The notes beneath the pieces are model-generated. The model was not told the origin of the DNA, made no database searches, and was given only the letters and a program-made list of their open reading frames with translations. A stretch of DNA of 64,000 bases. It comes from Microvirga sp. Mcv34 (lineage in GTDB: Bacteria; Pseudomonadota; Alphaproteobacteria; Rhizobiales; Beijerinckiaceae). Below are positions 1-21,772 of this stretch, piece by piece (positions within the stretch are counted from its first letter, which is position 1; each line of letters starts with the position of its first letter). Made by a program: the position numbers and the translations under genes. The DNA is taken from positions 1 through 64,000 of the forward strand of contig NZ_JALJRK010000026.1 of the NCBI RefSeq assembly GCF_024519725.1. Reading direction: 5' to 3'.

Positions 1-986
1 TGGCCCATGGCGTTCATGGTGTGGTGCGACTTGTGGCAGTGGATCGCCCAGTCGCCCGGCGCATCGGCGACGAACTCAAAGGCCCGCATCTGCCCGACCG
101 CCACGTCAACCGAAACCTCGGGCCAGCCGTTGTCAACCCAGCCACCGTCCGTGCCGGTGACCTTGAAGTCGTAGCCGTGCATGTGGATCGGGTGGTTGGT
201 CATGGTCAGGTTGCCGAAGCGGACGCGCACCTTGTCGCCCTGGCGCACCACGAGCGGGTCGATGCCGGGGAACACGCGCGTGTTCCAGCACCAGAGGTTG
301 AAGTCCGTCATCTCGTTGACCCGGGGCACGTACGAGCCGGCCTCGATGTCGAAGGCGTTGAGCAGGAACACGAAGTCGCGGTCGACCCGGCGCTCGGCCG
401 GATCGCGCGGATGGACGACGAAGAAGCCCATCATGCCCATCGCCATCTGCACCATCTCGTCCGAGTGCGGGTGGTACATGAAGGTGCCGGACTTCTGCAG
501 GACGAACTCGTACACGAAGGTCTTGCCCGGCGGGATGTGCGGCTGGGTCAGGCCGCCGACGCCGTCCATGCCGTTGGGCAGGAGCTGGCCGTGCCAGTGC
601 ACCGCCGTGTTCTCCGGCAGCTTGTTGGTGACGAAGATGCGGACCTTGTCGCCCTGCACCGCCTCGATGGTCGGCCCCGGGGACTGGCCGTTGTAGCCCC
701 ACAGGTGGGCCTTCATGCCGGGTGCCATCTCGCGCACCACGGGCTCGGCGACGAGATGGAACTCCTTCCAGTCACCGTTCTGGCGCCAGGGCAGCGTCCA
801 GCCGTTGAGGGTGACGACGGGCTGGTAGTCCGGGCCGCTCTTGGGATAGAGCGGCGGCTGCATGGTGGCCTCGGTCATGGTCGGCGCCTCAGGCAGGCTG
901 GCGGCCTGGGTGCGCCCGCTGATCATGGAGGCTCCGGCGAGGGCCAAGCCTCCGGCGCCGAGAAAGCCTCTTCGCGATACGGTCAT
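1..986 (-). CDS. Multicopper oxidase, Tat-exported (3' end outside window)
   Basis: Likely periplasmic multicopper oxidase acting in copper tolerance, for example by oxidising Cu(I). The start is ATG at 986. The N-terminus shows a Tat signal, SRRGFLGAG at residues 5-13, followed by a hydrophobic stretch. Copper-ligand motifs are visible in the usual order: HWHG near residue 130, YHPHSDEM near 161, HPIHMHGY near 270, and HCHKSHHTMNAM at the visible C-terminus, with HCHxxxHxxxxM for the type 1/3 copper site. About 328 codons are present and the gene runs off the left edge just after the last copper motif, so little is missing. It follows the TolC-like gene by 20 bp on the same strand and is probably co-transcribed with it. 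Family assignment is firm; the substrate is inferred. Confidence 0.93.
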   Translation of the reverse strand, partial: MTVSRRGFLGAGGLALAGASMISGRTQAASLPEAPTMTEATMQPPLYPKSGPDYQPVVTLNGWTLPWRQNGDWKEFHLVAEPVVREMAPGMKAHLWGYNGQSPGPTIEAVQGDKVRIFVTNKLPENTAVHWHGQLLPNGMDGVGGLTQPHIPPGKTFVYEFVLQKSGTFMYHPHSDEMVQMAMGMMGFFVVHPRDPAERRVDRDFVFLLNAFDIEAGSYVPRVNEMTDFNLWCWNTRVFPGIDPLVVRQGDKVRVRFGNLTMTNHPIHMHGYDFKVTGTDGGWVDNGWPEVSVDVAVGQMRAFEFVADAPGDWAIHCHKSHHTMNAMG

Positions 987-1006
987 TGGTGGTCTCCTCA
1001 GGTGTT

Positions 1007-2494
1007 TCAGTGGCCGCCGGCGGCGGCTTCCCCGCCGGCCGCGGCCGTTGTGGTTTCTCCGCCGCCGCCACCGCCCGCCAGGCCGCCGACGAGGGCCGCC
1101 TTGAGGTCGGTGGCAGCGATCCAGAAGTCGCGGCGGGCGTTGATCGCATCGACATTGCTCAGGATGCGGGTCCGGGCGTCGATGATGAGCTGAGTCACGT
1201 CGACGAGCATGCCGCTGTACTGGAGCAGGGCCTCATCCTGGATCCGCTTCTGCAAGGGCAGAACGCGGTTCTGGTAGTGGCGGGCGAGGTCATGCTTGCC
1301 CCGGTAGACCATGTAGGCCTCGCGGGCTTCGGACCGGACGTTGACCGCCCGCTCCGCCAACCGGTTCGCGGCCGCCATGTAGGCCTCCTGAGCCCCCCGG
1401 CGGGTCGACTGGCCGAAGTCGAAGATCGGGATCGTGAAGGAGGCCTCGATGCCGCGGGTCCGGCTTTTCTCCTTCTCGATCTCGACGCCTTCCTCGGAGA
1501 TGACCTTGCTCTTGCCGAAGCTCGAGCCCTCGACCAGCTCGATGTCGCTGACGACGCTGTTGACGACGTCGAGGCTGTACTGGCCCGCAACGGCGTTGAG
1601 GTCGTTGCGCAGAGCCTGCAGGTCGACGCGCCGGACCAGAGCCTCGCTCTCGACGTCCTTCTGGCTCGCCAGTCGGGATGGCAGCGGCGGCAGGTTCGTG
1701 GGCAGGGTGAAGTTGATGTCGCGGCCCCAGAGGCCGAGCTGACGGATCAGGCGCTCGCGCTCGACCTTCTGGTCGATGCGGGCCTGCGCGAGCTGAGCGC
1801 CCAACTCCTGGTAGAACGCATGCTCGCGGGCCTGCTCCAGCTTGTTGAGGGAGCCGGTCTCTCCGAGCTGCTTGGCCAGCTGAGACGCTGTCTCGGCCGT
1901 GGCGAGGGCTTGCTGCAGGAAGGCGACCTGCTGGTTGGCCGCAATGGCTCGGTAGTACTGCCGACGCGCCTCCGCCCCAAGAGCCAGCACGGCTTCGGCC
2001 GTCCGGAATTGGGCGGCGCGGAATTCCTGCTGGGCCACGGCCGAACGCTGCGGCAAGGTCGCGAGTTCGTACAATCCGATCAGAAGCTGCCGCTCGACTT
2101 CGAAGGATGCACCCCCGAGCAGTCCGCTCCGCCCCAGGACAACCCGCGGAGAGGGGGGCAGGCTGGCCTGCACGTAGGTGGCCTCGGACACGCCGAGGTC
2201 GTTGAAGGCCGCCTGCAGCCCTCTGTTCTTCAGGAACGCGATCTGGACGGCCGCGTCCGGCGTCAGCGGGCGCTTAAGAAGCGCCTCGACCCGCTGCTGA
2301 GCCCCGACGGCCTCGGCCTCGTTCGTGATCTTGCCGACATCCTTGTTGAGTTCGGTGTAGGCGACGTTCTGCGCCACCGAGAGGCCGCCATCCTGTGAGA
2401 ACCCTACACAACCTCCAAGGAATAGAGTGAGAGCAACGCCCCCGAGCAGCCCCAGCCGTGGCATCGAACTTGTCGTGCATTCTTGTTCATTCAT
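1007..2494 (-). CDS. TolC-family outer-membrane efflux lipoprotein
   Basis: A 495-residue outer-membrane channel protein of the TolC/CusC type, the exit duct of a tripartite efflux pump. The N-terminus has a hydrophobic signal ending in a lipobox (LFLGGC, Cys about residue 28), and two long coiled-coil repeat halves follow, as in OEP-domain proteins. The C-terminus is glycine- and alanine-rich. ATG at 2494 is preceded by AGGAAAG at good spacing. It lies between a small lipoprotein gene and the multicopper oxidase gene on the same strand. No periplasmic adaptor or RND pump gene is inside the window, so the pump partner is unknown. A role in copper export is inferred from context. Confidence 0.88.
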   Translation of the reverse strand: MNEQECTTSSMPRLGLLGGVALTLFLGGCVGFSQDGGLSVAQNVAYTELNKDVGKITNEAEAVGAQQRVEALLKRPLTPDAAVQIAFLKNRGLQAAFNDLGVSEATYVQASLPPSPRVVLGRSGLLGGASFEVERQLLIGLYELATLPQRSAVAQQEFRAAQFRTAEAVLALGAEARRQYYRAIAANQQVAFLQQALATAETASQLAKQLGETGSLNKLEQAREHAFYQELGAQLAQARIDQKVERERLIRQLGLWGRDINFTLPTNLPPLPSRLASQKDVESEALVRRVDLQALRNDLNAVAGQYSLDVVNSVVSDIELVEGSSFGKSKVISEEGVEIEKEKSRTRGIEASFTIPIFDFGQSTRRGAQEAYMAAANRLAERAVNVRSEAREAYMVYRGKHDLARHYQNRVLPLQKRIQDEALLQYSGMLVDVTQLIIDARTRILSNVDAINARRDFWIAATDLKAALVGGLAGGGGGGETTTAAAGGEAAAGGH

Positions 2495-2568
2495 TGCGTT
2501 GTCTTTCCTGCGCGTGCGTTGCCACGCCGCCCCCAGGCGGTCGGTATGTTATGTTGGCTGTCCACCGG

Positions 2569-2826
2569 TCACCGCCCGCGCCGGGCAGCGTCGTCTGAGT
2601 CACCCCGCTCCGGGTTCGCCCCTGGCGCGACCCGCCGATTGAGCTCACGCCAGTCCAGAGGCTCGACAACGTCGTAGTTCTGGATGCCCGCCGTCACGGG
2701 CGAATAACCGGGGTCTCGGATATCAGCATTGATACTGGAAGGTGCTACCAGGTAGGTGGGAGGGGTCGTGGGCACGCAGGCGCCCAGACCGAGTCCAAGG
2801 GCGGCGAGAGGTACTAGCTTGATCAT
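2569..2826 (-). CDS. Small lipoprotein, first gene of the TolC/multicopper oxidase set
   Basis: An 85-residue protein whose N-terminus is a short charged start, a hydrophobic core and a lipobox (LGLGAC, Cys at residue 17), so it should be exported and lipid-anchored. The mature part is rich in Pro, Asp and Arg with no recognised domain. Its stop lies 74 bp ahead of the TolC-like gene on the same strand, which suggests one transcript running through the efflux protein and the multicopper oxidase. I do not recognise the family; association with copper handling is context only. Confidence 0.6.
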   Translation of the reverse strand: MIKLVPLAALGLGLGACVPTTPPTYLVAPSSINADIRDPGYSPVTAGIQNYDVVEPLDWRELNRRVAPGANPERGDSDDAARRGR

Positions 2827-3027
2827 TGGGGCCGTCTCCGGACGGACCTCGGCAGTGCAGTCAGAAGGGGGACTTGGGTGATGACGGCAACGAGGCCGTC
2901 GCCCACAGCAGGTCTGACGTTCTGATCGCGACTGGGAGGAACCCGTTTCGAGCTTCAGGACGGTCGCAGCCGGCTCTCATGAGCGGACGCGACTATTCGT
3001 GCGGGCGTCAGTTCGCCCGCGCCTGGC

Positions 3028-3420
3028 TCAGATGGTTCGTGGGGGCCTGTCGAGGCCGCCGACGGTGATTTCCTCGACCTGCTCGTCACGGGCAAGGACG
3101 GTGGAAGCCTCGGATACGGCCGGGGAGTACAGGCTTGGCGCCACACTCGCTTGGAAGGCATGGCATGCGCCCATGCTGCAGCAGATCAGGCCGACGCAGT
3201 CCTGCGTGTCAGGATTGGTATCGGCCGCAACGGTCCACGCGGAAGCATCGCAAGACGCCGTCGTATCGGCATGTTCATGGTCTCCCTCGGAGTCAGCATG
3301 CTCATGTACGTCGGCCGCTGCTGCGGCATGCCGATGTGCAGCCTGCGCAGCCGCCTGCGGCCCGGAGATCGGAAAGATCGCCATGGTGATCGCAAGCAGC
3401 GCAACAATGATGGTGCCCAT
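3028..3420 (-). CDS. Exported His/Cys-rich small protein, putative copper-responsive
   Basis: A 130-residue protein from ATG at 3420. It opens with a hydrophobic export signal (MGTIIVALLAITMAIFPIS) followed by an Ala-rich cleavage region. The mature N-terminus is His-rich (AHRH, VHEHAD, DHEHAD), and the second half has five cysteines including DCVGLICCSMGACH. This composition suits periplasmic metal binding. The frame stays open upstream to GTG at 3558, which would add 46 residues ahead of the signal; neither start has a strong ribosome-binding site. A CueR-type promoter at 3580-3610 reads into it, so copper induction is likely. No named family recognised. Confidence 0.6.
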   Translation of the reverse strand: MGTIIVALLAITMAIFPISGPQAAAQAAHRHAAAAADVHEHADSEGDHEHADTTASCDASAWTVAADTNPDTQDCVGLICCSMGACHAFQASVAPSLYSPAVSEASTVLARDEQVEEITVGGLDRPPRTI

Positions 3421-3579
3421 CAGCCGCAAGGGAGGGAAGCTCCTGTTCGTTGGTATTGGATATGTGTCATGAAAGTTCGGATTAGACAAGCGGAAGCCGG
3501 ATGGGCGGGGATTGAGATCTAACGGAATGGAATGAAAGGTCGGAGCCTGATAATCCACCCCTGGGACAGCTTTCCGAAG

Positions 3580-3610
3580 GGCTTAGGGCTTCCCACCGTG
3601 GCAAGGTCAA
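3580..3610 (-). promoter_or_regulatory. CueR-type promoter for the His/Cys-rich gene
   Basis: On the minus strand: -35 TTGACC (3610-3605), a 19-bp spacer with the dyad CTTGCCACGGTGGGAAG, and -10 TAAGCC (3585-3580). The overlong 19-bp spacer with a central dyad is the mark of promoters activated by MerR-family regulators, and the arms match the copA and copZ promoters in this window. The predicted transcript starts just upstream of the GTG at 3558. Confidence 0.65.
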
Positions 3611-5275: not shown

Positions 5276-5443
5276 GGCAGGGCGACCGGCCCGTTCGGCT
5301 GATGGGATCGGATCATGGGTTCTGACAGTGTTATTCACCCTCTCTGACCCGAGCCGGAGCGCCCACCGTAGGCATCGCGGCATCTGCGGGCGTCTATCGG
5401 CGAGCTAGAGATCTGTGACACGGAATTGCCGATATTCGGCACC

Positions 5444-5466
5444 TATAGTATACCCCCCTATCTTAC
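5444..5466. promoter_or_regulatory. Probable DmeR operator ahead of dmeRF
   Basis: The stretch holds TATAGTATACCCCCCTATC, a run of six C flanked by AT-rich half-sites (AGTATA to the left, TATCTTAC to the right). RcnR and DmeR regulators recognise a six-base G/C tract flanked by short AT-rich inverted repeats, and the DmeR box described in Agrobacterium has this form (from memory). The right arm is less symmetric than the left. It ends 23 bp before the dmeR GTG start, where a repressor would block transcription. Confidence 0.75.
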
Positions 5467-5489
5467 TCGAACAGGCGGGGAGCTGCATC

Positions 5490-5768
5490 GTGTCCCACAC
5501 AACTAAAGACAAGGCGAAGTTGCTGGCGAGGGTGCGCCGGATCCGTGGTCAGGTCGAGGCGGTCGAGCGCGCCCTGGAGGCAGATATCGGGTGCGCCGAC
5601 GTGCTGATGCTCGTCGCTTCAGTGCGGGGAGCGGTCAACGGCCTTACCGCCGAGTTGATGGAGGAGCACATCCGGCATCATGTGGTCGACCCGGCCCGCG
5701 AGCCAGATGCCGACCGCGCCCGCGGCGCCCAAGAGCTGATCGATGTGGTCCGCACCTACCTGAAATGA
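5490..5768 (+). CDS. dmeR: DmeR, RcnR/CsoR-family Ni/Co-sensing repressor
   Basis: A 92-residue all-helical metal-sensing repressor. Counting from GTG 5490, the protein has His3, Cys35, His60 and His64, exactly the nickel/cobalt ligand set of E. coli RcnR, which both fixes this start and indicates Ni/Co rather than Cu specificity. The core (ARVRRIRGQVEAVERALE, then VRGAVNGLTAELMEEHI) is typical of the family. The frame is open 25 codons further upstream, but that would run through the operator. It is followed 40 bp later by the CDF exporter gene, the dmeRF arrangement known from Rhizobium and Agrobacterium. Metal binding should release it from the C-tract operator. Confidence 0.9.
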   Translation: MSHTTKDKAKLLARVRRIRGQVEAVERALEADIGCADVLMLVASVRGAVNGLTAELMEEHIRHHVVDPAREPDADRARGAQELIDVVRTYLK

Positions 5769-5808
5769 GCCGCCGCTCCCGCACACACGAACCCCACAGG
5801 TGAAACCG

Positions 5809-6816
5809 ATGCACGGCCCTTCCTCGCAGTCCTTGCAGCACGAGCATGTCTTCCTGGGCGACAACCACGAGCGTAACGAGCGCCGGACCTGGTTCGTGAT
5901 TGCCCTGACCGCCACCATGATGGTGGTCGAGATCGTCGCCGGGACCATCTACGGCTCGATGGCTCTGGTGGCTGACGGCTGGCACATGTCGACGCATGCC
6001 GCGGCCATGCTAATCAGCGCCTTAGCCTACTTCTACGCCCGCCGTCACGCCCACAATCCGCGCTTCACCTTCGGGACCGGCAAGCTCGGCGATCTCGCCG
6101 GCTTCGCCAGCGCCATCATTCTCGCCCTCATTGCGCTATTGATCGGGTGGGAGAGTGTCTTGCGTCTCGCTAACCCCATTCCCATCGACTTCGGGCAAGC
6201 GATCGCCGTCGCGGCCATTGGCCTAGTCGTGAACCTGGCGAGCGCGTGGCTGCTCAAGGACGACCACCACCATGGTGGGCACCATCACCATCATGGACAC
6301 GGTTATGATCATGGCCATCATCACGGGCATCACCATGGCCACGGCTCGCACCATGAGCATGACCACCACGACCACTCCCATGCCGGAGGACGCGACAACA
6401 ACCTCCGGGCCGCCTATCTGCATGTCCTAGCGGACGCGCTGACCTCTGTGCTGGCCATCGTCGCCCTGTTGGCCGGCAGCGTTTATGGCTGGCTCTGGCT
6501 GGACCCGTTGATGGGTATTGTCGGCGCACTGGTGATCGCCCGCTGGTCATGGGGGCTCATCCGCGATGCCGGCGCCGTCCTCCTCGACGTGATCCCCGAA
6601 GGCGAGGAGCTCCCGGACGAGATCCGGGAGGCTCTTGAGGGCGAGGGGGATAAGATCACTGACCTGCACGTCTGGCAGGTCGGGCCTGGACATCACGCGG
6701 CAATCATCTCGCTGGCGTCGCCGACCCCTAAGGCACCATCAACATACAAGGACCGGCTTTCTCATCTTCACGAGCTATCGCATGTGACTGTCGAGGTTCA
6801 AGCTCTACCGGCATGA
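5809..6816 (+). CDS. dmeF: DmeF, cation diffusion facilitator exporting Ni/Co
   Basis: A 335-residue inner-membrane cation/proton antiporter of the CDF family. Membrane helices carry the family metal-site pattern: H..D in TM2 (LVADGWHMSTHAAAM) and again in TM5 (YLHVLADALTSVLAI). Between TM4 and TM5, around residues 145-190, lies a very His-rich loop with repeated HHG/HGH units, typical of DmeF and ZitB-like proteins. The C-terminal cytoplasmic domain (ITDLHVWQVGPGHHAAIIS) is intact. ATG 5809 has AGGTGA just upstream; GTG 5800 is the alternative. It sits behind dmeR and should be derepressed by nickel or cobalt. Confidence 0.9.
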   Translation: MHGPSSQSLQHEHVFLGDNHERNERRTWFVIALTATMMVVEIVAGTIYGSMALVADGWHMSTHAAAMLISALAYFYARRHAHNPRFTFGTGKLGDLAGFASAIILALIALLIGWESVLRLANPIPIDFGQAIAVAAIGLVVNLASAWLLKDDHHHGGHHHHHGHGYDHGHHHGHHHGHGSHHEHDHHDHSHAGGRDNNLRAAYLHVLADALTSVLAIVALLAGSVYGWLWLDPLMGIVGALVIARWSWGLIRDAGAVLLDVIPEGEELPDEIREALEGEGDKITDLHVWQVGPGHHAAIISLASPTPKAPSTYKDRLSHLHELSHVTVEVQALPA

Positions 6817-11732: not shown

Positions 11733-13118
11733 TCAGGCCGCCGCCTTGCCGATCTCGCTGAAGCCAAGGAGGTCATCCAAGGTCTTTCTCGTCCGTTCCA
11801 AGAGGAGGGCGATGTCGTCCTGCGAGCAGCAGAGCGGAGGCGCAAAGCCCAGGGTGCCATCGCCGAAGGCGCGAATGATCAGACCGTTGGCATAGGCTGT
11901 TTCGAAGAGCTTCTCGCCGATTCTGACCGAAGGATCGAACTTGGCCTTCGTGTTCTTGTTGCTGACGATCTCCAGGGCCGCAAGCATGCCGCGCCCTCTG
12001 GCTTCGCCGACAAGCGGGTGGTCCTCAAGAGCCTTCAACCCGGCGATGAGCGCTTCTCCAGACCGGCGGCCCTGCTCTATCAGTCCGCCTTCCGTATAAA
12101 GCGCGATTGCCGCGAGCCCGGCAGCAGCGCTCACCGGGTGGCCGGAATAAGTAAATCCATGGCCGACTGCCATGCCGCTCCGAGCCGAGGCATCCGCAAT
12201 GACCGAATAGATGGACTCCCGCATCATCACCGCGCCCATGGGCAAATAACCTGAGGTAAGACCCTTGGCCATGGTCATCAGATCCGGCACGATGCCCTCG
12301 TGCTCGCAGGCGAAGATAGGGCCGGTTCGCCCGAAGCCAGTGATCACCTCGTCGGCGACGAAGAGGATGTCGAGCTCGGCGCAAAGATCGCGCATGGCCT
12401 TGACCCACCCTTCGGGCGGAACGATCACGCCCCCCGAACCCTGGATCGGCTCGCAGTAGAAGGCGGCCACCTTCTCGGGGCCTCCGAGCTCGGTGACCTT
12501 CGCCTTGAGGGCTTTCAGTGACGCCGCGATGATGGTCGGGCCGTCGCTTCCGACCGGATTGCGGTAGGGATATGGCGAAGGGATGCGGTGCTGCCAGGCG
12601 AGCGGAACGTCGAAGCCGGCATGGAACAGCGGAAGCGCGGTCAATCCAGAGCCGGTCGACGAAGAGCCGTGATAGCCCTGCTCGAGGGTGATGAACTGCT
12701 TCTTCTCCGGTTTGCCGAGCGCGTTGAAGTAGTACCGAATGAACCGGATCGTGGTGTCGATGGCGTCTGATCCGCCAAGAGTGAAATAGACGCGGTTAAG
12801 ATCGCCTGGTGCCAACTCCGCCAGTCGCGCGGCAAGCCGGATCGGGGTTTCCGCGCCGAAGTGGAAATAGCCCGTAGCGTATTGAAGCTCCTGAAGCTGA
12901 CGGTTGATGGCCTCGATGATGGTCGGCTGGCCGTAGCCGGCATTCACGCACCACAGGCCGGCGAAGCCGTCGAGCAGCCGGTTGCCGGCGGCATCGCGCA
13001 CGTAGGCGCCTTCGCCGGACGCAATGACGGTTACGCCACGCGCCTCATGCGCCCGGTAGGGCGCGACAGGGTGAATGAGATGCTGGCGATCAAGTTCGAC
13101 AAGAGAGTTGCTGAGCAT
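11733..13118 (-). CDS. Class III (omega) aminotransferase
   Basis: A 461-residue PLP enzyme of aminotransferase class III, the group that includes putrescine-pyruvate and beta-alanine-pyruvate transaminases. Visible motifs: YFTLGGSDAIDTTIRFIRYY for substrate and cofactor contacts, LFVADEVITGFGRTG with the PLP-binding Asp near 258, and MTMAKGLTSGYLPMGAV with the Schiff-base Lys near 287. It moves the amino group from an amine or omega-amino acid to pyruvate or 2-oxoglutarate, giving an aldehyde that an aldehyde dehydrogenase (gabD lies further on) could oxidise. A GNAT gene precedes it on the strand order 14000 to 13155. Substrate inferred only. Confidence 0.88.
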   Translation of the reverse strand: MLSNSLVELDRQHLIHPVAPYRAHEARGVTVIASGEGAYVRDAAGNRLLDGFAGLWCVNAGYGQPTIIEAINRQLQELQYATGYFHFGAETPIRLAARLAELAPGDLNRVYFTLGGSDAIDTTIRFIRYYFNALGKPEKKQFITLEQGYHGSSSTGSGLTALPLFHAGFDVPLAWQHRIPSPYPYRNPVGSDGPTIIAASLKALKAKVTELGGPEKVAAFYCEPIQGSGGVIVPPEGWVKAMRDLCAELDILFVADEVITGFGRTGPIFACEHEGIVPDLMTMAKGLTSGYLPMGAVMMRESIYSVIADASARSGMAVGHGFTYSGHPVSAAAGLAAIALYTEGGLIEQGRRSGEALIAGLKALEDHPLVGEARGRGMLAALEIVSNKNTKAKFDPSVRIGEKLFETAYANGLIIRAFGDGTLGFAPPLCCSQDDIALLLERTRKTLDDLLGFSEIGKAAA

Positions 13119-14341: not shown

Positions 14342-16633
14342 TCAGGCCATCTTGAGCGACGCTTGCAGCGGGGGCGGCTCGGCGGGAGTTTTCTCCCGCC
14401 ATGTGCCAAAGAAGCCGAGGAGGCGCAGGGCGTTTAATGTGACGAGAACCGTTCCGCCGGTGTCGGCCACGATCGCCATCCAGAGCCCGGTTGCCCCGGT
14501 CACGGTCGTCACCAGGAAGATCGCCTTCAGGCCCAGAGCGATGCCGATGTTCTGGCGGATGGTGGCCATCGTGGCCCGGGAGAGGCGAACGAGGGAGGCA
14601 ATGTCTGTGACGCGGTTTCGCAACAGAGCGGCATCCGCAGCCTCCAGAGCCACATCGGTCCCCGAGCCCATGGCGACGCCGACGTGAGCGGCCGCAAGGG
14701 CAGGAGCATCGTTGATGCCGTCGCCGACCATCACAATATGCCGGCTTTGTGCGATCGAGCGGACCGTCTCGGACTTGTCGCTGGGCATCATCTCGGCCTG
14801 GACGTTCACGCCGAGCTTGCGGCCGATGGCCTGACCCGTGCGGATGTTGTCGCCCGTCAGCATGAGAACGTCGATGCCGAGGCCCTTGAGTTCGGCCAGA
14901 CCCTTCTGCGCGTCGGCGCGGGGCTCGTCGCGGAAGGCAAGGAGGCCGGTGATTGCACGCCCCTTCACTACGACCGCGACGGTCTTGCCCTGCTCTTCCA
15001 GGTCTGAGATGTGCCGGGCCAAGCGGGCATCGACGGCGGCGCGCTCGGCCGCAAAGCGGGGCGCTCCAATGAAGACGGTGTCCGTTCCGACGGAGCCCTC
15101 CATGCCCCGTCCCGGGAGGGCGCGGACGTTGGCGGCTTCGACGAGCGAGACCCCGTCCTTCTCGGCCCGCGCCGCCACGGCCTGGGCGAGGGGGTGGTTG
15201 GATTCGCGCTCGATGGCTCCGGCGAGGGCAAGAACCTCGGTTTCTGTGGAGCCCACAGGAACCACGTCCGTCACGAACGGGCGGCCCAGGGTCAGGGTGC
15301 CGGTCTTGTCGAAGGCGACGACCTGTGCCTTAGCGAGGCTTTCCACGACGGCGCCGCCCTTCACGAGGAGGCCGTGGCGAGCCGCGGTCGAGAGGCTCGA
15401 CGCGATCGCGGCCGGCACCGAGATGACGAGCGCGCAGGGGCAGCCAATCAGCAGCAGGGTGAGTCCGCGATAGACCCAGGTCGTCCAGTCACCGTCGAGA
15501 AGCAGGGGAGGGACAACAGCCACGAGAGCGGAAAGCCCGACGATGAGCGGCATGTAGAGCCGGGAGAACTTGTCGATGAACCGCTCGGTCGGCGCTTTGG
15601 CTTCTTGAGCTTCTTCGACAAGAGCTATGATGCGCGAGATCATGTTGTCCTGCGCCGTGCGCTCCACCCGCACGCGGATCGCCGCGTCGTGGTTGATCGA
15701 GCCGGAGAAGATCTCGGCGCCGGGCTCCTTGAGCTTAGGAACTGACTCGCCGGTGATCGGCGATTCGTCCACGCTCGAGATGCCGTCGATCACCTTTCCG
15801 TCCGCCGGCACCCGGTCGCCTGGGCGCACCTGGACGATCTGTCCGATCCGCAGGGCTTCCGCGGAGACCTCGCGCAGCTGGCCTGCATCTTCGACAACGG
15901 CGGTCTTGGGCACGAGGGCGCCGAGCGCCTTGATGCCAGCCCGGGCCTTATTGGCGGCGACGCCTTCGAGCACTTCGCCGACAGCAAAGAGGAACACGAC
16001 GATGGCGGCTTCTTCCGCTGCGCCGATAAACAGGGCGCCGATGGCAGCGATGGTCAGCAGCATCTGGATCGTGAAGGGAGCGCCAGCCATGGCCGCCATG
16101 ACGGCGCGCTTGGCGACTGGAGCGGCGGCGACGACGGTTGCGAGAATGAAGACCCAGTAGGATGCCTGCGGTACCACCACGCTTGCCACATAGGCTAGCA
16201 CGACCAGCAGCCCCGATGTCGCCGCGACTTGAGCCTTCGAAGTTTGCCACCAGCTTGGAGCAGGTTTTTCCATGCCCTTCGAAGTGATGGTTTCGGCCGG
16301 AGCCGAGGCGCTGCGAAGGAGGCTCGGCGGATAGCCCAGGTTCCTGATCTGGCTTTCGATAGCTGTGATCTGCGTCTTGGTTTCGTCGAGCACCAGCGAC
16401 AGTGTTTCGTTGGTGATGGAGACCTTGAGGCCGGAGACACCCGGCAGGCGCTCGATGGCCGTGCGAATCGTCGCGGCGCAGCTGCCGCAATCCATCCCTT
16501 CAACCTTCCACATCGCCGAAGCCGCGGCGGGAGCAGCATGCTCGTTATGTTGGTCATGGTGATCATGGCTGCAGCACGCCCCATGGGCATGATCATGCTT
16601 GTGGGCGGCGGCGTGATCGTGAGGGGCTTTCAT
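14342..16633 (-). CDS. zntA: ZntA-type Zn/Cd/Pb-exporting P1B ATPase
   Basis: A 763-residue inner-membrane heavy-metal ATPase. The N-terminus is His-rich (HDHAAAHKHDHAHGACC), followed by one HMA domain (GMDCGSCAATI). The membrane metal site is CPCALVISVPAAI and the catalytic sites are TGES, DKTGTLTLG, the SNHP nucleotide-site motif and [13 protein letters not shown]. The motifs after CPC and GTDVALEAADAALLRN fit the Zn/Cd/Pb subgroup, not copper. ATG 16633 has GAGGAAT at proper spacing; an upstream in-frame start at 16711 would lie at the -35 box and is rejected. It is divergent from a MerR-family gene, with a MerR-type promoter between them. Confidence 0.92.
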   Translation of the reverse strand: MKAPHDHAAAHKHDHAHGACCSHDHHDQHNEHAAPAAASAMWKVEGMDCGSCAATIRTAIERLPGVSGLKVSITNETLSLVLDETKTQITAIESQIRNLGYPPSLLRSASAPAETITSKGMEKPAPSWWQTSKAQVAATSGLLVVLAYVASVVVPQASYWVFILATVVAAAPVAKRAVMAAMAGAPFTIQMLLTIAAIGALFIGAAEEAAIVVFLFAVGEVLEGVAANKARAGIKALGALVPKTAVVEDAGQLREVSAEALRIGQIVQVRPGDRVPADGKVIDGISSVDESPITGESVPKLKEPGAEIFSGSINHDAAIRVRVERTAQDNMISRIIALVEEAQEAKAPTERFIDKFSRLYMPLIVGLSALVAVVPPLLLDGDWTTWVYRGLTLLLIGCPCALVISVPAAIASSLSTAARHGLLVKGGAVVESLAKAQVVAFDKTGTLTLGRPFVTDVVPVGSTETEVLALAGAIERESNHPLAQAVAARAEKDGVSLVEAANVRALPGRGMEGSVGTDTVFIGAPRFAAERAAVDARLARHISDLEEQGKTVAVVVKGRAITGLLAFRDEPRADAQKGLAELKGLGIDVLMLTGDNIRTGQAIGRKLGVNVQAEMMPSDKSETVRSIAQSRHIVMVGDGINDAPALAAAHVGVAMGSGTDVALEAADAALLRNRVTDIASLVRLSRATMATIRQNIGIALGLKAIFLVTTVTGATGLWMAIVADTGGTVLVTLNALRLLGFFGTWREKTPAEPPPLQASLKMA

Positions 16634-16680
16634 CCGATTCCTCGTTGAGGCGATAGGTTGCGGGTTGACATCGGATGCCC

Positions 16681-16711
16681 AACCTAATTCCTCTAGTAAC
16701 TTCAGGTTCAA
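16681..16711 (-). promoter_or_regulatory. MerR-type (CadR/ZntR-like) promoter of zntA
   Basis: Minus strand: -35 TTGAAC (16711-16706), 19-bp spacer, -10 TAGGTT (16686-16681). The spacer holds the dyad CCTGAAGTTACTAGAGG, symmetric as CCTnnAGTnACTnnAGG. The AGTnACT core is what CadR, PbrR and ZntR operators share and differs from the CueR boxes elsewhere in the window. The divergent regulator at 16723 should bind here. Confidence 0.78.
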
Positions 16712-16722
16712 GAGGGAATTTC

Positions 16723-17175
16723 ATGCCGGAGCGAACTTTTTCAATCGGCCATGTCTCGTCCGCGACCGGATGCAAGGTGGAGACGATCCGCTTTTATGAA
16801 AGCATCGGTCTGCTGCCTGAACCTGAGCGCACCGAAGGTAATCAGCGCCGCTACCTTGCCAAGCATATCGACCGCCTGAGGTTCATCCTTCATGCGAGGG
16901 AGCTTGGCTTGGCTGTCGAGGCGATTCGCCAGCTCATCGCATTGGGCGAAAACCCTGCGGCGTCGTGCGAGCAGGCCGACGAGATCGCACGTCAGCAGCT
17001 CCAGCTGGTTAGGGACAAAATCGCCCGACTCACGCAGCTGGCGGAGGAACTGGAGCGGATCGTGGCAAGCTGCAGCGGAGAGCGGATCGCAGATTGCCGC
17101 GTCATGGAGGTGCTCGCCGACCACAGCCACTGCGATCATGGGGATAGGCGCGGCAACGTGAGGTCCCGAGCATAA
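16723..17175 (+). CDS. MerR-family Zn/Cd/Pb-responsive activator
   Basis: A 150-residue MerR-type regulator with the N-terminal helix-turn-helix (FSIGHVSSATGCKVETIRFY, then ESIGLL) and a long dimer helix. Cysteines 82, 117 and 125 match the metal-site positions of ZntR, CadR and PbrR. Cys82 is the divalent-metal marker that CueR replaces with Ser. The C-terminus adds ADHSHCDHGD, a His/Cys cluster like that of CadR. The C117-C125 spacing is eight, as in CueR, so the exact metal preference is unsure. The frame opens earlier at 16675 but ATG 16723 gives the family start. It should switch the divergent zntA promoter. Confidence 0.88.
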   Translation: MPERTFSIGHVSSATGCKVETIRFYESIGLLPEPERTEGNQRRYLAKHIDRLRFILHARELGLAVEAIRQLIALGENPAASCEQADEIARQQLQLVRDKIARLTQLAEELERIVASCSGERIADCRVMEVLADHSHCDHGDRRGNVRSRA

Positions 17176-17291: not shown

Positions 17292-17552
17292 TCAGGCGTG
17301 AGCCGGGGTCGGCGTGTAGCCGGCGACCGTGATAATGTTGCTGATCTGGGCCAGGTCAGCAGCGCCCTCGACGGAGACGAGGCGGGCCTCCGGATCGGCA
17401 GTCACCTTCGTGCCCGGGATCGAGCTCTCGATGGCGCTCTTGATCGTGCCGGCGCAATGGCCGCAGGTCATGTCCTCAACGCGGACGGAAATGCCGGCGC
17501 CGGTCGCGGCCGTGGAAACCTGGTCGTTGGAATGCTGGTGGCTGCTGCACAT
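17292..17552 (-). CDS. copZ: CopZ-like copper chaperone (HMA domain)
   Basis: An 86-residue cytosolic protein with one heavy-metal-associated domain. The metal site is VEDMTCGHCAGTIKSAI near residue 25, and the rest follows the beta-alpha-beta pattern ending ITVAGYTPTPAHA. A short His/Ser-rich head (MCSSHQHSNDQ) may add metal ligands. ATG 17552 has AAGGAG eight bases upstream; the frame is open to 17600, but that runs into the promoter. It should carry Cu(I) to the CopA ATPase encoded divergently. It has its own CueR-type promoter and a clear terminator, so it is a one-gene transcript. Confidence 0.9.
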   Translation of the reverse strand: MCSSHQHSNDQVSTAATGAGISVRVEDMTCGHCAGTIKSAIESSIPGTKVTADPEARLVSVEGAADLAQISNIITVAGYTPTPAHA

Positions 17553-17582
17553 GGGATGCTCCTTTGCGAGGTTGATGCCGGG

Positions 17583-17613
17583 ACACTGCAGGTTTCCCAC
17601 ATGGGAAGGTCAA
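17583..17613 (-). promoter_or_regulatory. CueR-type promoter of copZ
   Basis: Minus strand: -35 TTGACC (17613-17608), 19-bp spacer, -10 CAGTGT (17588-17583). The spacer carries ACCTTCCCATGTGGGAAACCT, very close to the classic CueR operator with ACCTTCCC and GGGAA arms. Confidence 0.85.
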
Positions 17614-17673: not shown

Positions 17674-17704
17674 TTGACCTTACCCCAGTGGGAAGCTTTA
17701 TGGA
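17674..17704 (+). promoter_or_regulatory. CueR-type promoter of the copA operon
   Basis: Plus strand: -35 TTGACC (17674-17679), 19-bp spacer and -10 TATGGA (17699-17704). The spacer dyad is ACCTTACCCCAGTGGGAAGCT. The predicted transcript begins about 15 bp before the copA ATG, and cueR is the third gene of the operon, which gives a positive autoregulatory loop. Confidence 0.85.
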
Positions 17705-17730
17705 TTCGTCCGTCTCGTGATCAAAGGATT

Positions 17731-20271
17731 ATGCCCGTGGCGGACAAGCTGTCATCCCTCAATGCCTCGACCTCGCAAATCCTAGGAATTCCCATCTCGG
17801 GAATGACCTGCGCCTCGTGCGTCGGGCGCGTGGAAAAAGCCATCCGTGCCGTCGAGGGCGTGCAGAGCGTTGCGGTTAACCTCGCCACCGAGCGGGCCCA
17901 AGTAACCACTGCGCCAGGCATTCAACCCGAGGCCGTCTTGAATGCCATCCGGAACGCGGGTTACGAACCGCGCGAGGAGAACGCCGACCTGTCGGTTCAC
18001 GGGATGACGTGCGCATCTTGCGTGGGACGCGTCGAGCGCGCACTGAACGCGGTGCCGGGCGTACTGGGAGCGTCCGTCAACCTCGCCACGGAGCGGGCGC
18101 ACATCCGCTACGCAGGCGGCGGCGACGTGCTGGCCGCTGTCATCGCTGCGGCCGAGAAGGCCGGTTATCCCGCTGAGCAGGTGCGCACCGACGCTGCTCA
18201 AGGCGACCGCGAGAAGGAAGCCCGCGCCGCCGAGATCACGCGTTTGCAGCGCTCCCTCATCGTTGCCGCCATCGCGACCATCCCGTTGCTCGTCTTCGAG
18301 ATGGGCTCGCACATGATCGAGGAACTGCACCACTTCCTGGCCGGCAACATCGGCGAGCGCAACATCAAGCTCATCTGCTTCGTCCTCGCCACCATCGTTC
18401 AGTTCGGTCCGGGACGCATCTTCTATGTGAAGGGCTGGCCCGCCTTGCTGCGTGGTGCCCCGGACATGAATTCCCTGGTCATGCTGGGCACCAGCACGGC
18501 CTACGGCTACTCTGTAGTCTCGACCTTCGTGCCGTCCGTGCTGCCGATCGGGATGGATTACACCTATTATGAAGCGGGAGCGGTGATCGTCACCTTGATC
18601 CTACTCGGACGCTTCTTCGAAGCGCGGGCAAAAGGCCGCACCGGCGACGCAATCCGGCGCCTCATGACCCTGCAGGCGAAGACCGCACGGGTGATCAAGG
18701 ATGGTCGGGAGCAGGATGTGCCAGTCGAAGTCGTCCGCGTGGGCGACATCGTGGTGGTTCGCCCGGGTGAACGGGTACCCGTGGACGGCGAAGTGATCTC
18801 CGGTTCCTCCTTCGTCGACGAGTCCATGATCACTGGCGAGCCGATTCCAGCTCAGAAGAATGTCGGCGCCAGCGTTGTCGGCGGCACGGTCAACAAGACG
18901 GGCGCGTTCCAGTTCCGAGCCGCGAAGGTGGGAAGCGATACCGTGCTCGCACAGATCGTGCGCACCGTCGAGGCGGCGCAAGGCGCCAAGCTTCCAATCC
19001 AGGCCATCGTCGACAAGGTGACGATGTGGTTCGTCCCGGTGGTCATGGCGCTGGCCGCCGTCACCTTTCTGGTCTGGCTCGCCTTCGGTCCCGAGCCGGC
19101 TCTCAGCTTCGCGCTCGTCAACGCGGTCGCGGTTCTGATCATCGCCTGCCCCTGTGCCATGGGCTTGGCGACCCCGACCTCGATCATGGTGGGTACCGGC
19201 AAGGCCGCCGAGCTTGGCATCCTGTTCCGCCGGGGCGAGGCCCTTCAGGCCCTGCGCAACACGAAGGTGATTGCCCTCGACAAGACAGGAACCCTCACCA
19301 AGGGCCGTCCGGAACTCACGGACCTCCAGGCTGCCCCAGGCTTCACCGAGGATGACGTGCTGACCCTCGTGGCTTCCGTGGAGACGCGGTCCGAGCATCC
19401 CATTGCCGAGTCAATCGTCGCCGAGGCACGCCGTCGTGGCCTTGCCCTGGCGGAACCCGAGACCTTCGATGGCAAGCCCGGCTTCGGTGTCGTGGCGAAA
19501 GTCAGCGGACGCGAGGTGGTGGTCGGCGCAGATCGTCTCATGGCTCAGCGCGGGCACGACCTCGGCATCTTTGCCGCAACGGCGGAGCGCTTGGCCGGGC
19601 AGGGCAAGTCGCCTCTCTATGCGGCTGTGGACGGGCGCCTTGCCGCAATCATCGCAGTGGCCGACCCCATCAAGGAGACTACGCCGGCGGCTCTCGAGGC
19701 GCTTCGTGGCCTTGGTCTGCGGATCGTCATGATCACCGGAGACAACCGCCGCACGGCTGATGCTATCGCACGGACCCTAGGCGTGGACGAAGTGGTCGCC
19801 GAGGTGTTGCCGACCGACAAGGCCGACGTGGTCAAGCGCCTGCAGAGCGGCGGTGCGGCGGTGGCCTTCGTGGGCGACGGCATCAACGACGCCCCGGCGC
19901 TGGCGCAGGCCGATGTGGGCCTCGCCATCGGCACCGGCACGGACATCGCCATCGAGAGCGCGGATGTGGTGCTCATGTCGGGCGACCTCCGCAACGTGCC
20001 CAACGCGATCGCCCTCTCGCAGGCGACGATCCGCAACATCGGACAGAACCTGTTCTGGGCGTTCGGCTACAATGCCGTGCTGATCCCGGTGGCTGCCGGC
20101 GCGCTTTACCCCACGTTCGGGATTCTGCTCTCCCCGATGGTGGCGGGCCTAGCTATGGCGCTCTCCAGCGTGAGCGTGCTCAGCAACGCCCTGCGTCTGC
20201 GCAGCTTCTCCCCGCCGGTGAGGACCGGTGAGGAGCGGCGGGCGGTCCTGCGCCCGGTGCCAGCGGAGTAG
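17731..20271 (+). CDS. copA: CopA, Cu(I)-exporting P1B ATPase with two HMA domains
   Basis: An 846-residue inner-membrane Cu(I) pump. Two tandem HMA domains each have [12 protein letters not shown] (near residues 23 and 93), similar enough to suggest an internal duplication. Then come the membrane site [16 protein letters not shown], the phosphorylation site [18 protein letters not shown] and [20 protein letters not shown]. The Cu(I)-specific residues of the last helices are visible as FGYNAVLIP and [18 protein letters not shown] 17731 has AAAGGATT in front and lies just after the CueR-type promoter; the longer frame from 17674 starts inside the -35 box. It leads an operon with an oxidoreductase and cueR. 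Confidence 0.95.
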
Positions 20272-20280
20272 GGGGGCGTC

Positions 20281-21300
20281 ATGAGTTTCACCGTCACCGT
20301 CGCGAACACCTCCTCAACGTTTGAGGTTGCCGAAGACACCACAATCATCCAGGCGGCCGTAGCCTCCGGAGTAGCCTATCCCTACGGTTGCCAGGTCGGC
20401 CGCTGCGGGACCTGCAAGTCCCGCCTCATCGACGGCGAGGTCGATCACCTCCCGCATACGCCGTTTTCCCTCACGGAGAAGGACAAACAGTCGGGCTTCA
20501 TTCTGGCCTGCCGATCCCGACCGCGCTCCGACTGCATCGTTGCCTGGCTCGGGAGCGACACGGCCGACCATCCTCTGCGCCAGGAGGCGGGACGGGTGGT
20601 GCATCTGGAGCGCGCGGCGCCGGACATCACGATTGTGCATATGCGGCTTGAGGAAGCGGTTCCGCTCAGGTTCTCCGCAGGACAGTATGCTGAACTTACG
20701 TTCCCCGGCTGTCCGCCGCGGCACTACTCCATGGCCAACCAGCCAGGCTCGGACACGCTCGAGTTCCATGTGCGGCATGTCCCCGATGGTTCAACGAGCG
20801 GCTATGTGGCCCGAGCCCTGAAGGTGGGCGATCCGGTCTTCCTGCGCGGCCCGGTCGGGACCGCTCATCTTCGGCCCCGCCAGACAGGACCCATCGTCGC
20901 CGTGGCCGGCGGGTCGGGGCTGGCGCCAATCCTGTCCATTCTCGGCGCAGCCTCCGCCCTCCAACTGACTCAACCGATCCGCCTGTATTTCGCGGCGCGG
21001 ACGAGGGAGGACCTCTATCGGGAGGAGCAGATCCGCGCCCTGACGGAGAACAATTCCAACATCGCCTATACGCCAGTCGTGGCCAATGAAGGCGGGGGTG
21101 GGGGCCGGAAACGGCTCCGTGAGGTCCTTGAGAAGGACTTGGTCGACCTGCAAGGATGGCGAGCTTATCTCGCGGGCTCGCCGCAGCTGGTTGATGGCGT
21201 CACGGAAATCCTGGTGGGCCGGGGACTCGCCCCTGAGCACTGCCATGCAGATGCCTTCTTCACAGAGGCCGAGAAGGCAAGCATTCTAGAGGCCTCCTAA
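20281..21300 (+). CDS. Ferredoxin-FNR fusion oxidoreductase in the copper operon
   Basis: A 339-residue NAD(P)H-dependent electron-transfer protein. Residues 1-90 form a plant-type [2Fe-2S] domain with CQVGRCGTCKSRLIDG and a later Cys in ILACRSRPRSDC. Residues 100-330 form an FAD/NAD(P)-binding reductase module: RHYSMANQPGSD for FAD, VAVAGGSGLAPILSIL for NAD(P), and YLAGSPQLVDG near the end. This is the domain order of oxygenase reductases such as CDP-6-deoxyhexose or phenol hydroxylase reductases. It starts 9 bp after copA and ends 22 bp before cueR, with no oxygenase nearby. A role in reducing Cu(II) or protecting Fe-S enzymes is an inference. Confidence 0.88.
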   Translation: MSFTVTVANTSSTFEVAEDTTIIQAAVASGVAYPYGCQVGRCGTCKSRLIDGEVDHLPHTPFSLTEKDKQSGFILACRSRPRSDCIVAWLGSDTADHPLRQEAGRVVHLERAAPDITIVHMRLEEAVPLRFSAGQYAELTFPGCPPRHYSMANQPGSDTLEFHVRHVPDGSTSGYVARALKVGDPVFLRGPVGTAHLRPRQTGPIVAVAGGSGLAPILSILGAASALQLTQPIRLYFAARTREDLYREEQIRALTENNSNIAYTPVVANEGGGGGRKRLREVLEKDLVDLQGWRAYLAGSPQLVDGVTEILVGRGLAPEHCHADAFFTEAEKASILEAS

Positions 21301-21322
21301 CGTCTGATCACGAGCATATGCG

Positions 21323-21772
21323 ATGAACATTGGTGAAGCAGCGCAAGCCTCCGGCGTATCGGCCAAGATGGTGCGGTATTATGAGAGGATCGGGCTTATC
21401 CGCCCCGCGACACGGACGGAAAGCGGCTACAGGGTCTACAACGATGAGGATGTCCATACCCTGCGGTTCGTCCGGCGCTCGCGGGGCCTAGGCTTCTCCA
21501 TAGAGGAAACGGCAGAGCTTCTGGCCCTCTGGCGCGACAGGGGACGCGCGAGCGCGGACGTGAAGTCCTTCGCGCTCAAACATTTGAAGGATCTGGAGGC
21601 CAAGATCGAATCGCTGCAGTCCATGTGCCGGACGCTTCGGCATCTGGCGAGCAACTGCCATGGAGACGGACGGCCTGACTGTCCGATCCTCGACGATATC
21701 GCGGCATTCGGGCCGGGCGACAAGGAGGCAAAGCGCACGAAGAGCATGACGAACTGTAACCATTCGCACTAA
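21323..21772 (+). CDS. cueR: CueR, copper-responsive MerR-family activator
   Basis: A 149-residue MerR-type regulator. The helix-turn-helix is MNIGEAAQASGVSAKMVRYY. The metal loop has Cys112 and Cys120 (SNCHGDGRPDCPIL), and residue 77 is Ser. All three match E. coli CueR numbering and mark a Cu(I)/Ag(I) sensor. The tail ends in CNHSH, possibly an extra ligand patch. It is the third gene of the copA operon and should activate the CueR-type promoters at 17583-17613 and 17674-17704, and probably those at 3580-3610 and 4636-4666. Confidence 0.93.
   Translation: MNIGEAAQASGVSAKMVRYYERIGLIRPATRTESGYRVYNDEDVHTLRFVRRSRGLGFSIEETAELLALWRDRGRASADVKSFALKHLKDLEAKIESLQSMCRTLRHLASNCHGDGRPDCPILDDIAAFGPGDKEAKRTKSMTNCNHSH

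What the first reader, a model, noticed from the sequence alone, without database searches (positions are those of the whole stretch)
17674..21772. copA - [2Fe-2S]/FNR reductase - cueR operon
An oxygenase-reductase-like protein (ferredoxin domain, FAD and NAD(P) sites) sits 9 bp after copA and 22 bp before cueR under a CueR promoter. No oxygenase partner is near. It could reduce Cu(II) to the Cu(I) that CopA and CopZ handle, or repair copper-damaged Fe-S centres. I know of no established role for such a reductase in copper export.
Basis: partly seen in the sequence, partly recalled or inferred. Interest (0 to 1): 0.68.

Follow-up and report, generated by a model that had tools for sequence, protein, structure and literature searches.

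The report
Copper-operon iron-sulfur flavin reductase
In some soil and root-nodule bacteria the copper-pump operon also carries a gene for an NAD(P)H-driven iron-sulfur reductase of the kind that normally serves oxygenases; related bacteria keep it under the same copper-sensing switch, so it is probably a dedicated helper that supplies electrons during copper detoxification.

Summary
In detail: copA (17731-20271), a [2Fe-2S]-FAD-NAD(P)H reductase ("FNR", 20281-21300) and cueR (21323-21772) lie on one strand with 9- and 22-bp gaps behind a CueR-type promoter. It is not chance. A CueR-type site lies within 3.3 kb upstream of 25 of 27 copper-linked FNRs, 0 of 17 oxygenase-linked ones and 1 of 24 others; that one, an Ensifer FNR without copA, and four similar loci keep their own site. 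Residues R41 and H59 mark 27 of 28 copper-type rows and 0 of 40 others. In a later, partly overlapping sample 33 of 33 loci with both residues had a copper feature. A glutaredoxin often accompanies it, not here. The nearest relatives outside copper loci sit in diiron-oxygenase clusters.

Best reading: an oxygenase-type reductase recruited as the reductive arm of CueR-controlled copper export, most likely reducing Cu(II). The acceptor is not shown; disulfide reduction, Fe-S repair or an unlinked partner remain open. It is accessory: 6 of 66 close Microvirga copA genes have it directly downstream.

The parts
17674..17704 (+). CueR-type promoter of copA-FNR-cueR: -35 TTGACC (17674-17679), 19-bp spacer, dyad 17677-17697, -10 TATGGA (17699-17704)
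   Evidence: (12/14 of the dyad consensus; p=0.003, the floor of 300 mononucleotide shuffles)
17731..20271 (+). copA, Cu(I) P1B-type ATPase with two HMA domains
20281..21300 (+). [2Fe-2S]-FAD-NAD(P)H reductase, 339 aa; cluster Cys37, 42, 45, 77; RxYS at 147-150; copper-type residues R41 and H59
21323..21772 (+). cueR, Cu(I)-responsive MerR-family activator; S77, C112 and C120 at the places recalled for E. coli CueR
   Evidence: residue roles recalled
17292..17561 (-). copZ-like HMA protein (MTCGHC), divergent from copA
   Evidence: PF00403 passes; below the CopZ model cut-offs
17590..17610 (-). weak CueR-type dyad facing copZ
   Evidence: 3 mismatches; six hits in the window, 2.29 expected; two of the six lie between copZ and copA

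Best explanation
The gene encodes a soluble BenC/GcoB-type electron-transfer flavoprotein: NAD(P)H -> FAD -> [2Fe-2S]. It was recruited from oxygenase-type reductases into the CueR copper-detoxification regulon. Shown here by sequence: domain architecture, intact cluster and cofactor motifs, purifying selection, operon position, CueR-type sites also on free-standing copies in relatives, and a copper-type residue pair in the cluster domain. Inferred: when Cu(I) activates CueR, the reductase is made together with CopA and feeds electrons to copper itself, turning Cu(II) (or Cu(II) held on thiols) in the cytosol into the Cu(I) that CopZ, and in relatives a glutaredoxin, pass to CopA. Probability that it is a dedicated copper-regulon enzyme: about 0.93. 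That its main acceptor is Cu(II): about 0.4.
For: Operon and promoter. CueR-type site within 3.3 kb upstream of the FNR in 25 of 27 copper-linked rows, 0 of 17 oxygenase-linked, 1 of 24 others (the Ensifer FNR L048, no copA found) (the pattern was written after seeing the copper promoters). Stand-alone FNRs L205, L210, L211, L213 have a site 119-125 bp before the match and none of the sought copper genes in the fetched flanks of about 7 kb. R41+H59: 27 of 28 copper rows, 0 of 40 others. Later sample: 33 of 33 loci with both residues have copA, cueR, Grx or a CueR-type site; 0 of 5 with other residues do, but these five are also distant (34-38% identity). All 20 control copA loci of Microvirga have cueR next after copA (in L195 with a Grx between), so the FNR occupies a slot inside a conserved pair. 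Precedents: Cu(II) reduction through Fe-S centres by A. fulgidus CopZ and CcoG, physiological electron donors unknown; RclA; human Grx1 hands Cu to ATP7B domains.
Against: No activity was tested. No clear copper-binding motif beyond H59. Of 66 close Microvirga copA genes 60 lack it directly downstream, so export does not need it. Two copper-linked rows lack the site (L047, L065), as do L219 and L233 among the 33 later loci. Some copies are broken or split (L050/L232, L233, L235), and L165 keeps the FNR beside a copA-grx remnant. The window's own FNR is on a long branch that may join the copper or the oxygenase clade, so its copper link may be a separate recruitment.
Confidence: 0.45

Rival explanations
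1. Thiol-repair arm: together with a glutaredoxin it keeps the CxxC copper sites of CopZ, CopA and related proteins reduced during copper stress.
For: A Grx match lies in 16 of 27 copper-linked rows (labels) and 25 of 33 later motif loci, usually 0-95 bp before the FNR match (1.2-1.3 kb in L065, L219, L230). L064 fuses a Grx-like stretch to the FNR. The same Grx family sits in copper loci of two Deinococcus, one Acidithiobacillus and one Staphylococcus plasmid. Human Grx1 exchanges Cu with Cu-ATPase domains (abstract).
Against: The window genome gave no match to this Grx (a short query without a positive control, so weak), and 11 of 27 copper-linked rows have none near. The fused stretch in L064 reads CPDF instead of CPDC and has no Pfam glutaredoxin hit. 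Plant-type [2Fe-2S] donors are one-electron carriers, not known disulfide reductases (recalled).
Confidence: 0.22
2. Electron donor for repair or rebuilding of copper-damaged Fe-S or diiron centres.
For: Copper attacks exposed Fe-S clusters (established, recalled); the Fer2 domain weakly matches the YfaE maintenance ferredoxin (28.6 bits vs cut-off 75).
Against: No isc, suf or RNR gene was noticed beside the FNR in the gene tables and ORF lists that I read; not a systematic scan.
Confidence: 0.1
3. Reductase of an oxygenase, or of another redox enzyme encoded elsewhere, that merely shares copper control.
For: Nearest relatives outside copper loci are in FNR-SDR-PaaC-like diiron-gentisate dioxygenase clusters; PDB neighbours are BenC, GcoB, the carbazole dioxygenase reductase and T4moF; the acceptor is unknown; the window FNR may descend from the oxygenase side.
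Against: No partner found near; oxygenase-linked rows lack CueR-type sites (0 of 17); residues 41 and 59 of the cluster domain differ between the clades.
Confidence: 0.18
4. Passenger gene: carried along on mobile copper islands without a copper role.
For: Patchy occurrence (9 of 397 genomes of the order; 8 of 48 Microvirga; 39 of 394 in one family); also on plasmids (21 listed records at 43% identity or more); some broken copies.
Against: dN/dS 0.07-0.12; own CueR-type sites on free-standing copies; found with copA genes that are not one clade.
Confidence: 0.05

Closest known systems
BenC / GcoB / T4moF-type oxygenase reductases (PDB 1krh, 5ogx, 4wqm)
   Same: Domain order, cluster Cys pattern, best matches by sequence and by Foldseek
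   Different: No oxygenase partner found; CueR-type control; BenC equivalog score 182.5 vs cut-off 430; 27-33% identity to these chains
FNR of alphaproteobacterial FNR-SDR-PaaC-like diiron-gentisate dioxygenase clusters (e.g. L040, L142)
   Same: Nearest homologues outside copper loci, about 39-47% identical
   Different: N41 (21 of 23) and Y59 (18 of 23) instead of R41/H59; no CueR-type site
CcoG (R. capsulatus), bacterial cupric reductase
   Same: Fe-S protein; by the review, loss raises copper sensitivity and overproduction promotes tolerance
   Different: Membrane-bound, two tetranuclear clusters, unknown electron donor, in the cbb3-oxidase gene cluster
A. fulgidus CopZ
   Same: Fe-S domain linked to cytosolic Cu(II) reduction for Cu export (review)
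   Different: Chaperone fusion in an archaeon, electron donor unknown; here NAD(P)H and FAD domains are in the same chain and copZ is a separate gene
RclA (E. coli Cu(II) reductase)
   Same: Reported Cu(II) reductase (abstract); flavoprotein (recalled)
   Different: Mercuric-reductase homologue (section heading), induced by HOCl; no [2Fe-2S] (recalled)

Membership tests
Oxygenase-type [2Fe-2S]-FAD-NAD(P)H reductase (BenC-like architecture) | Fer2, FAD_binding_6 and NAD_binding_1 in this order | tested here: met
Oxygenase-type [2Fe-2S]-FAD-NAD(P)H reductase (BenC-like architecture) | Four cluster cysteines and FAD/NAD motifs intact | tested here: met
   (C37, C42, C45, C77, R147, S150, G210, G211, S212, G213 invariant in 8 rows)
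Oxygenase-type [2Fe-2S]-FAD-NAD(P)H reductase (BenC-like architecture) | BenC-like fold | tested here: met
   top hits 1krh, 5ogx, but TM about 0.6 and rmsd about 12 over the whole chain; four-row model, mean pLDDT 72.7, so domain arrangement is uncertain
Functional oxygenase component (BenC, MmoC, AntC) | Scores above the curated equivalog cut-off | tested here: not met
   182.5/430, 164.6/500, 150.2/402 bits
Functional oxygenase component (BenC, MmoC, AntC) | Oxygenase genes beside it | tested here: not met
   only some oxygenase types were sought
CueR regulon member | CueR equivalog encoded in the locus | tested here: met
   TIGR02044 178.1 vs 147.4
CueR regulon member | CueR-type operator with long spacer upstream of the transcription unit | tested here: met
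CueR regulon member | Copper-induced transcript | not testable with these tools
   needs RT-qPCR or RNA-seq
Bacterial cupric reductase (functional class) | NAD(P)H-dependent Cu(II) reduction | not testable with these tools
   needs purified protein
CcoG or RclA protein families | Same domain family | tested here: not met
   only Fer2/FAD_binding_6/NAD_binding_1; what CcoG and RclA are and recall; no direct alignment was made
Copper-type FNR subfamily defined here | R41 and H59 in the cluster domain | tested here: met
Copper-type FNR subfamily defined here | One clade with the other copper-linked FNRs | tested here: inconclusive
   p-AU 0.451 with the copper clade, 0.429 with the oxygenase clade

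The most novel reading that the evidence does not exclude
A soluble, NAD(P)H-fuelled cupric reductase under direct CueR control, evolved from an oxygenase reductase by change of its cluster-domain face (R41, H59), that supplies Cu(I) to CopZ/Grx and CopA: a self-contained cytosolic reduction-and-export module whose electron source is readable from sequence.
Probability: 0.38. Interest if true: 0.8.

Novelty: new variant of a known kind. Interest (0 to 1): 0.6.

Why it matters
The review read here says that Cu-specific reductases were not known in bacteria until recently and that the electron donors of CcoG and of A. fulgidus CopZ are unknown. A reductase that carries its own NAD(P)H site, sits inside a CueR-type operon and has a two-residue signature makes the question directly testable in non-pathogenic soil bacteria. 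It would also show how an oxygenase-type reductase can be re-purposed for metal resistance.

Tried and rejected
Chance juxtaposition: rejected by conserved order, purifying selection and CueR-type sites. A hidden oxygenase partner: relatives of the sister clade's SDR, PaaC-like and gentisate enzymes sought in window 1-40000, none found; Rieske and other types not sought. One clean copper clade including the window: not shown. A single origin of the FNR-bearing Microvirga copA genes: rejected for the six CopA rows (p-AU 5.5e-9) and for the three outside the window trio (p 0.0032), on a quick tree with 20 controls that I chose from 60; repeated gain, repeated loss and copA exchange are not told apart. 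The L064 fusion as strong proof of Grx-FNR pairing: weakened. Structure: moderate confidence and poor in the cluster loop, so no distances were taken; that residues 41 and 59 are close to the cluster is inferred from the C37-x3-R41-C42 spacing and from recalled ferredoxin structures. Literature: ten searches (two returned nothing, several listings were cut) showed no title or abstract on this reductase in copper operons; only open-licence PMC papers are held. PMC5552934 (Rhizobiales Cu-ATPase survey; passages only): no occurrence of 'reductase' or 'glutaredoxin'. PMC10304878 (Cupriavidus; passages only): nothing on such a reductase in what I saw.

Rows dropped: of 74 FNR loci six were left out of the trees (L167 duplicate of L041; L159 and L160 read through stops; L144 on a 3-kb contig; L080 and L162 short). 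Thirteen more long-branch or distant rows were left out of the second tree, among them the copper-linked L050 and L072. L049 was skipped in the CopA tree because of a stop in its CopA match. In one search, L232 and L234 could not be read at residue 41; G372's own place, one of 41 listed, was not fetched again.
Full report
What is there. On the plus strand the window carries copA (17731-20271), a 339-aa reductase (20281-21300) and cueR (21323-21772), separated by 9 and 22 bp. CopA passes the copper P1B subfamily model and CueR its equivalog cut-off. The reductase has Fer2, FAD_binding_6 and NAD_binding_1 domains, with cluster cysteines and cofactor motifs invariant among eight relatives. A copZ-like gene is divergent. 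There is no dyad of its own directly before the window's FNR. Relatives in M. sesbaniae (85%) and M. ossetica (89%, on a plasmid) have the same order. dN/dS of the reductase is 0.07-0.12.

How often. In Microvirga, 8 of 48 genomes (the window's included) hold a match to the copper-type profile at E<=1e-70, each at more than 515 bits. All 48 have CopA, in 69 places, 66 of them at 64% identity or more. From the coordinates of both calls, all eight FNRs lie within 10 kb of a copA and six lie directly behind it. In the order, 9 of 397 genomes match the single sequence at E<=1e-60. In the class sample 60 of 385 match the profile at 1e-70, but only 3 at 500 bits or more. In the phylum sample 53 of 398 match, 3 at 500 bits or more. 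In the family of G372, 39 of 394 match at 1e-90. The gene is an accessory.

Neighbourhoods. Among the opened loci with identity above about 42%, most fall in two sets. One is tied to copA, cueR, copZ and often a small CPDC glutaredoxin (PF00462) placed before the FNR. The other is an FNR-SDR-PaaC-like-gentisate dioxygenase cluster; its parts were found by tblastn with the genes of L040, which I named by eye. Six such loci (L039, L048, L146, L148, L155, L172) showed none of the sought neighbours. The Grx family also occurs in copper loci of two Deinococcus, Acidithiobacillus caldus and Staphylococcus epidermidis plasmids, where no such FNR is annotated (these gene tables are incomplete). So FNR and Grx look like separable redox helpers of copper loci.

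Regulation. A site TTGACY-N11-GGAR, a pattern written after looking at copper promoters, was sought upstream of each FNR on its strand. Within 3.3 kb it is present in 25 of 27 copper-linked rows (before copA, or before grx-fnr when these stand apart), in 0 of 17 oxygenase-linked rows and in 1 of 24 others; the two copper rows without it are L047 and L065. The background was 19 sites in 969,628 bases of both strands of L136-L175, copper loci included. The one 'other', L048 of Ensifer adhaerens, and four more loci of the same kind are reductases without the sought copper genes in the fetched stretch that keep a site 119-125 bp before the match. I read this as CueR control of the reductase itself. 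It is sequence evidence, not a binding experiment.

Descent. In a tree of 55 rows a copper clade of 22 rows (21 copper-linked plus L048) has support 94/95, just under the tool's star, and an oxygenase clade of 23 rows (16 oxygenase-linked, 7 other) has 97/92. The window trio sits on a branch of length 0.88 and can join either (p-AU 0.451 and 0.429). L157, another copA-FNR pair from a different class, is also unplaced. A first tree with 68 rows and long branches was less resolved. Nine columns separate the two clades, and from these I took R41, in the cluster loop, and H59. Both are present in 27 of 28 copper rows (L064 lacks R41) and in 0 of 40 others. The states of the window trio and L157 were on view when I chose; L072 and L050 were not, and both have the pair. 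In a later, partly overlapping sample of 40 loci, 33 had both residues, and all 33 had copA, cueR, Grx or a CueR-type site (27 copA, 31 site, 25 Grx). Five with other residues had none, but they are also the most distant (34-38% identity). Two were unreadable at residue 41. So the pair marks the clade; that the residues themselves cause the change is not tested.

CopA genes with an FNR are not one clade: the six Microvirga rows are rejected as a clade (p 5.5e-9), while all 20 control loci show copA followed by cueR. Repeated gain, repeated loss or exchange of copA could each give this.

Mechanism. The protein should carry electrons from NAD(P)H through FAD to a [2Fe-2S] cluster (architecture; neighbours BenC, GcoB, carbazole dioxygenase reductase). 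The acceptor is inferred. I favour Cu(II), because the gene has CueR-type control with or without copA and with or without Grx, CopA exports Cu(I), and Fe-S or flavin cupric reductases exist elsewhere (review section read; RclA abstract). Disulfides of Grx, CopZ or CopA come second: human Grx1 exchanges copper with Cu-ATPase domains (abstract). Fe-S repair and an unlinked partner enzyme are possible.

Novelty. No paper on this arrangement appeared in the listings of ten searches of the held library, which holds only open-licence papers and whose listings were partly cut. The protein family and the copper operon are known kinds; their union, with its own regulatory and residue signature, is a new variant.

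Noticed in passing
window 1-3610, minus strand: A second CueR-type site (TTGACC at 3610, minus strand) stands before a run of minus-strand genes: a small protein, a lipoprotein-like ORF, an outer-membrane-factor-like ORF and a multicopper-oxidase-like ORF (names by eye from sequence).
   Followed up: partly
window 5415-6816: CsoR/RcnR-like regulator followed by a cation-diffusion-facilitator-like gene, so the region may be a multi-metal island (names by eye).
   Followed up: no
window 14342-17175: ZntA-like ATPase divergent from a MerR-family gene that scores best with CadR-PbrR, then CueR, below both cut-offs; the ATPase is below the ZntA equivalogs. Both are found beside the operon in M. sesbaniae and M. 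ossetica.
   Followed up: partly
L165:7085-7699: One ORF joins remnants of copA and of the glutaredoxin beside a full-length FNR in another Microvirga.
   Followed up: partly
L064:5015-5791 and L072:5093-5866: A protein with a glutaredoxin-like N-terminus (by eye) and, in L064, a MauE membrane domain, near FNRs of the copper type in two genomes.
   Followed up: no
L040, L140-L145, L149, L151, L153, L154, L158, L168, L173, L175: FNR-SDR-PaaC-like diiron protein clusters, most with a gentisate-dioxygenase-like gene in the stretch held, recur in Alphaproteobacteria and one genome of another class; substrate not identified.
   Followed up: no
L180 and Staphylococcus plasmid hits: A distant relative of the copper Grx matches 98 Staphylococcus plasmid records; in the one opened it is divergent from a metal-sensing repressor, a heavy-metal ATPase and copZ.
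   Followed up: partly
L157:1852-3285 and window 11733-13118: Both copA-FNR loci have a similar aminotransferase-like gene in the vicinity; may be coincidence (by eye).
   Followed up: no
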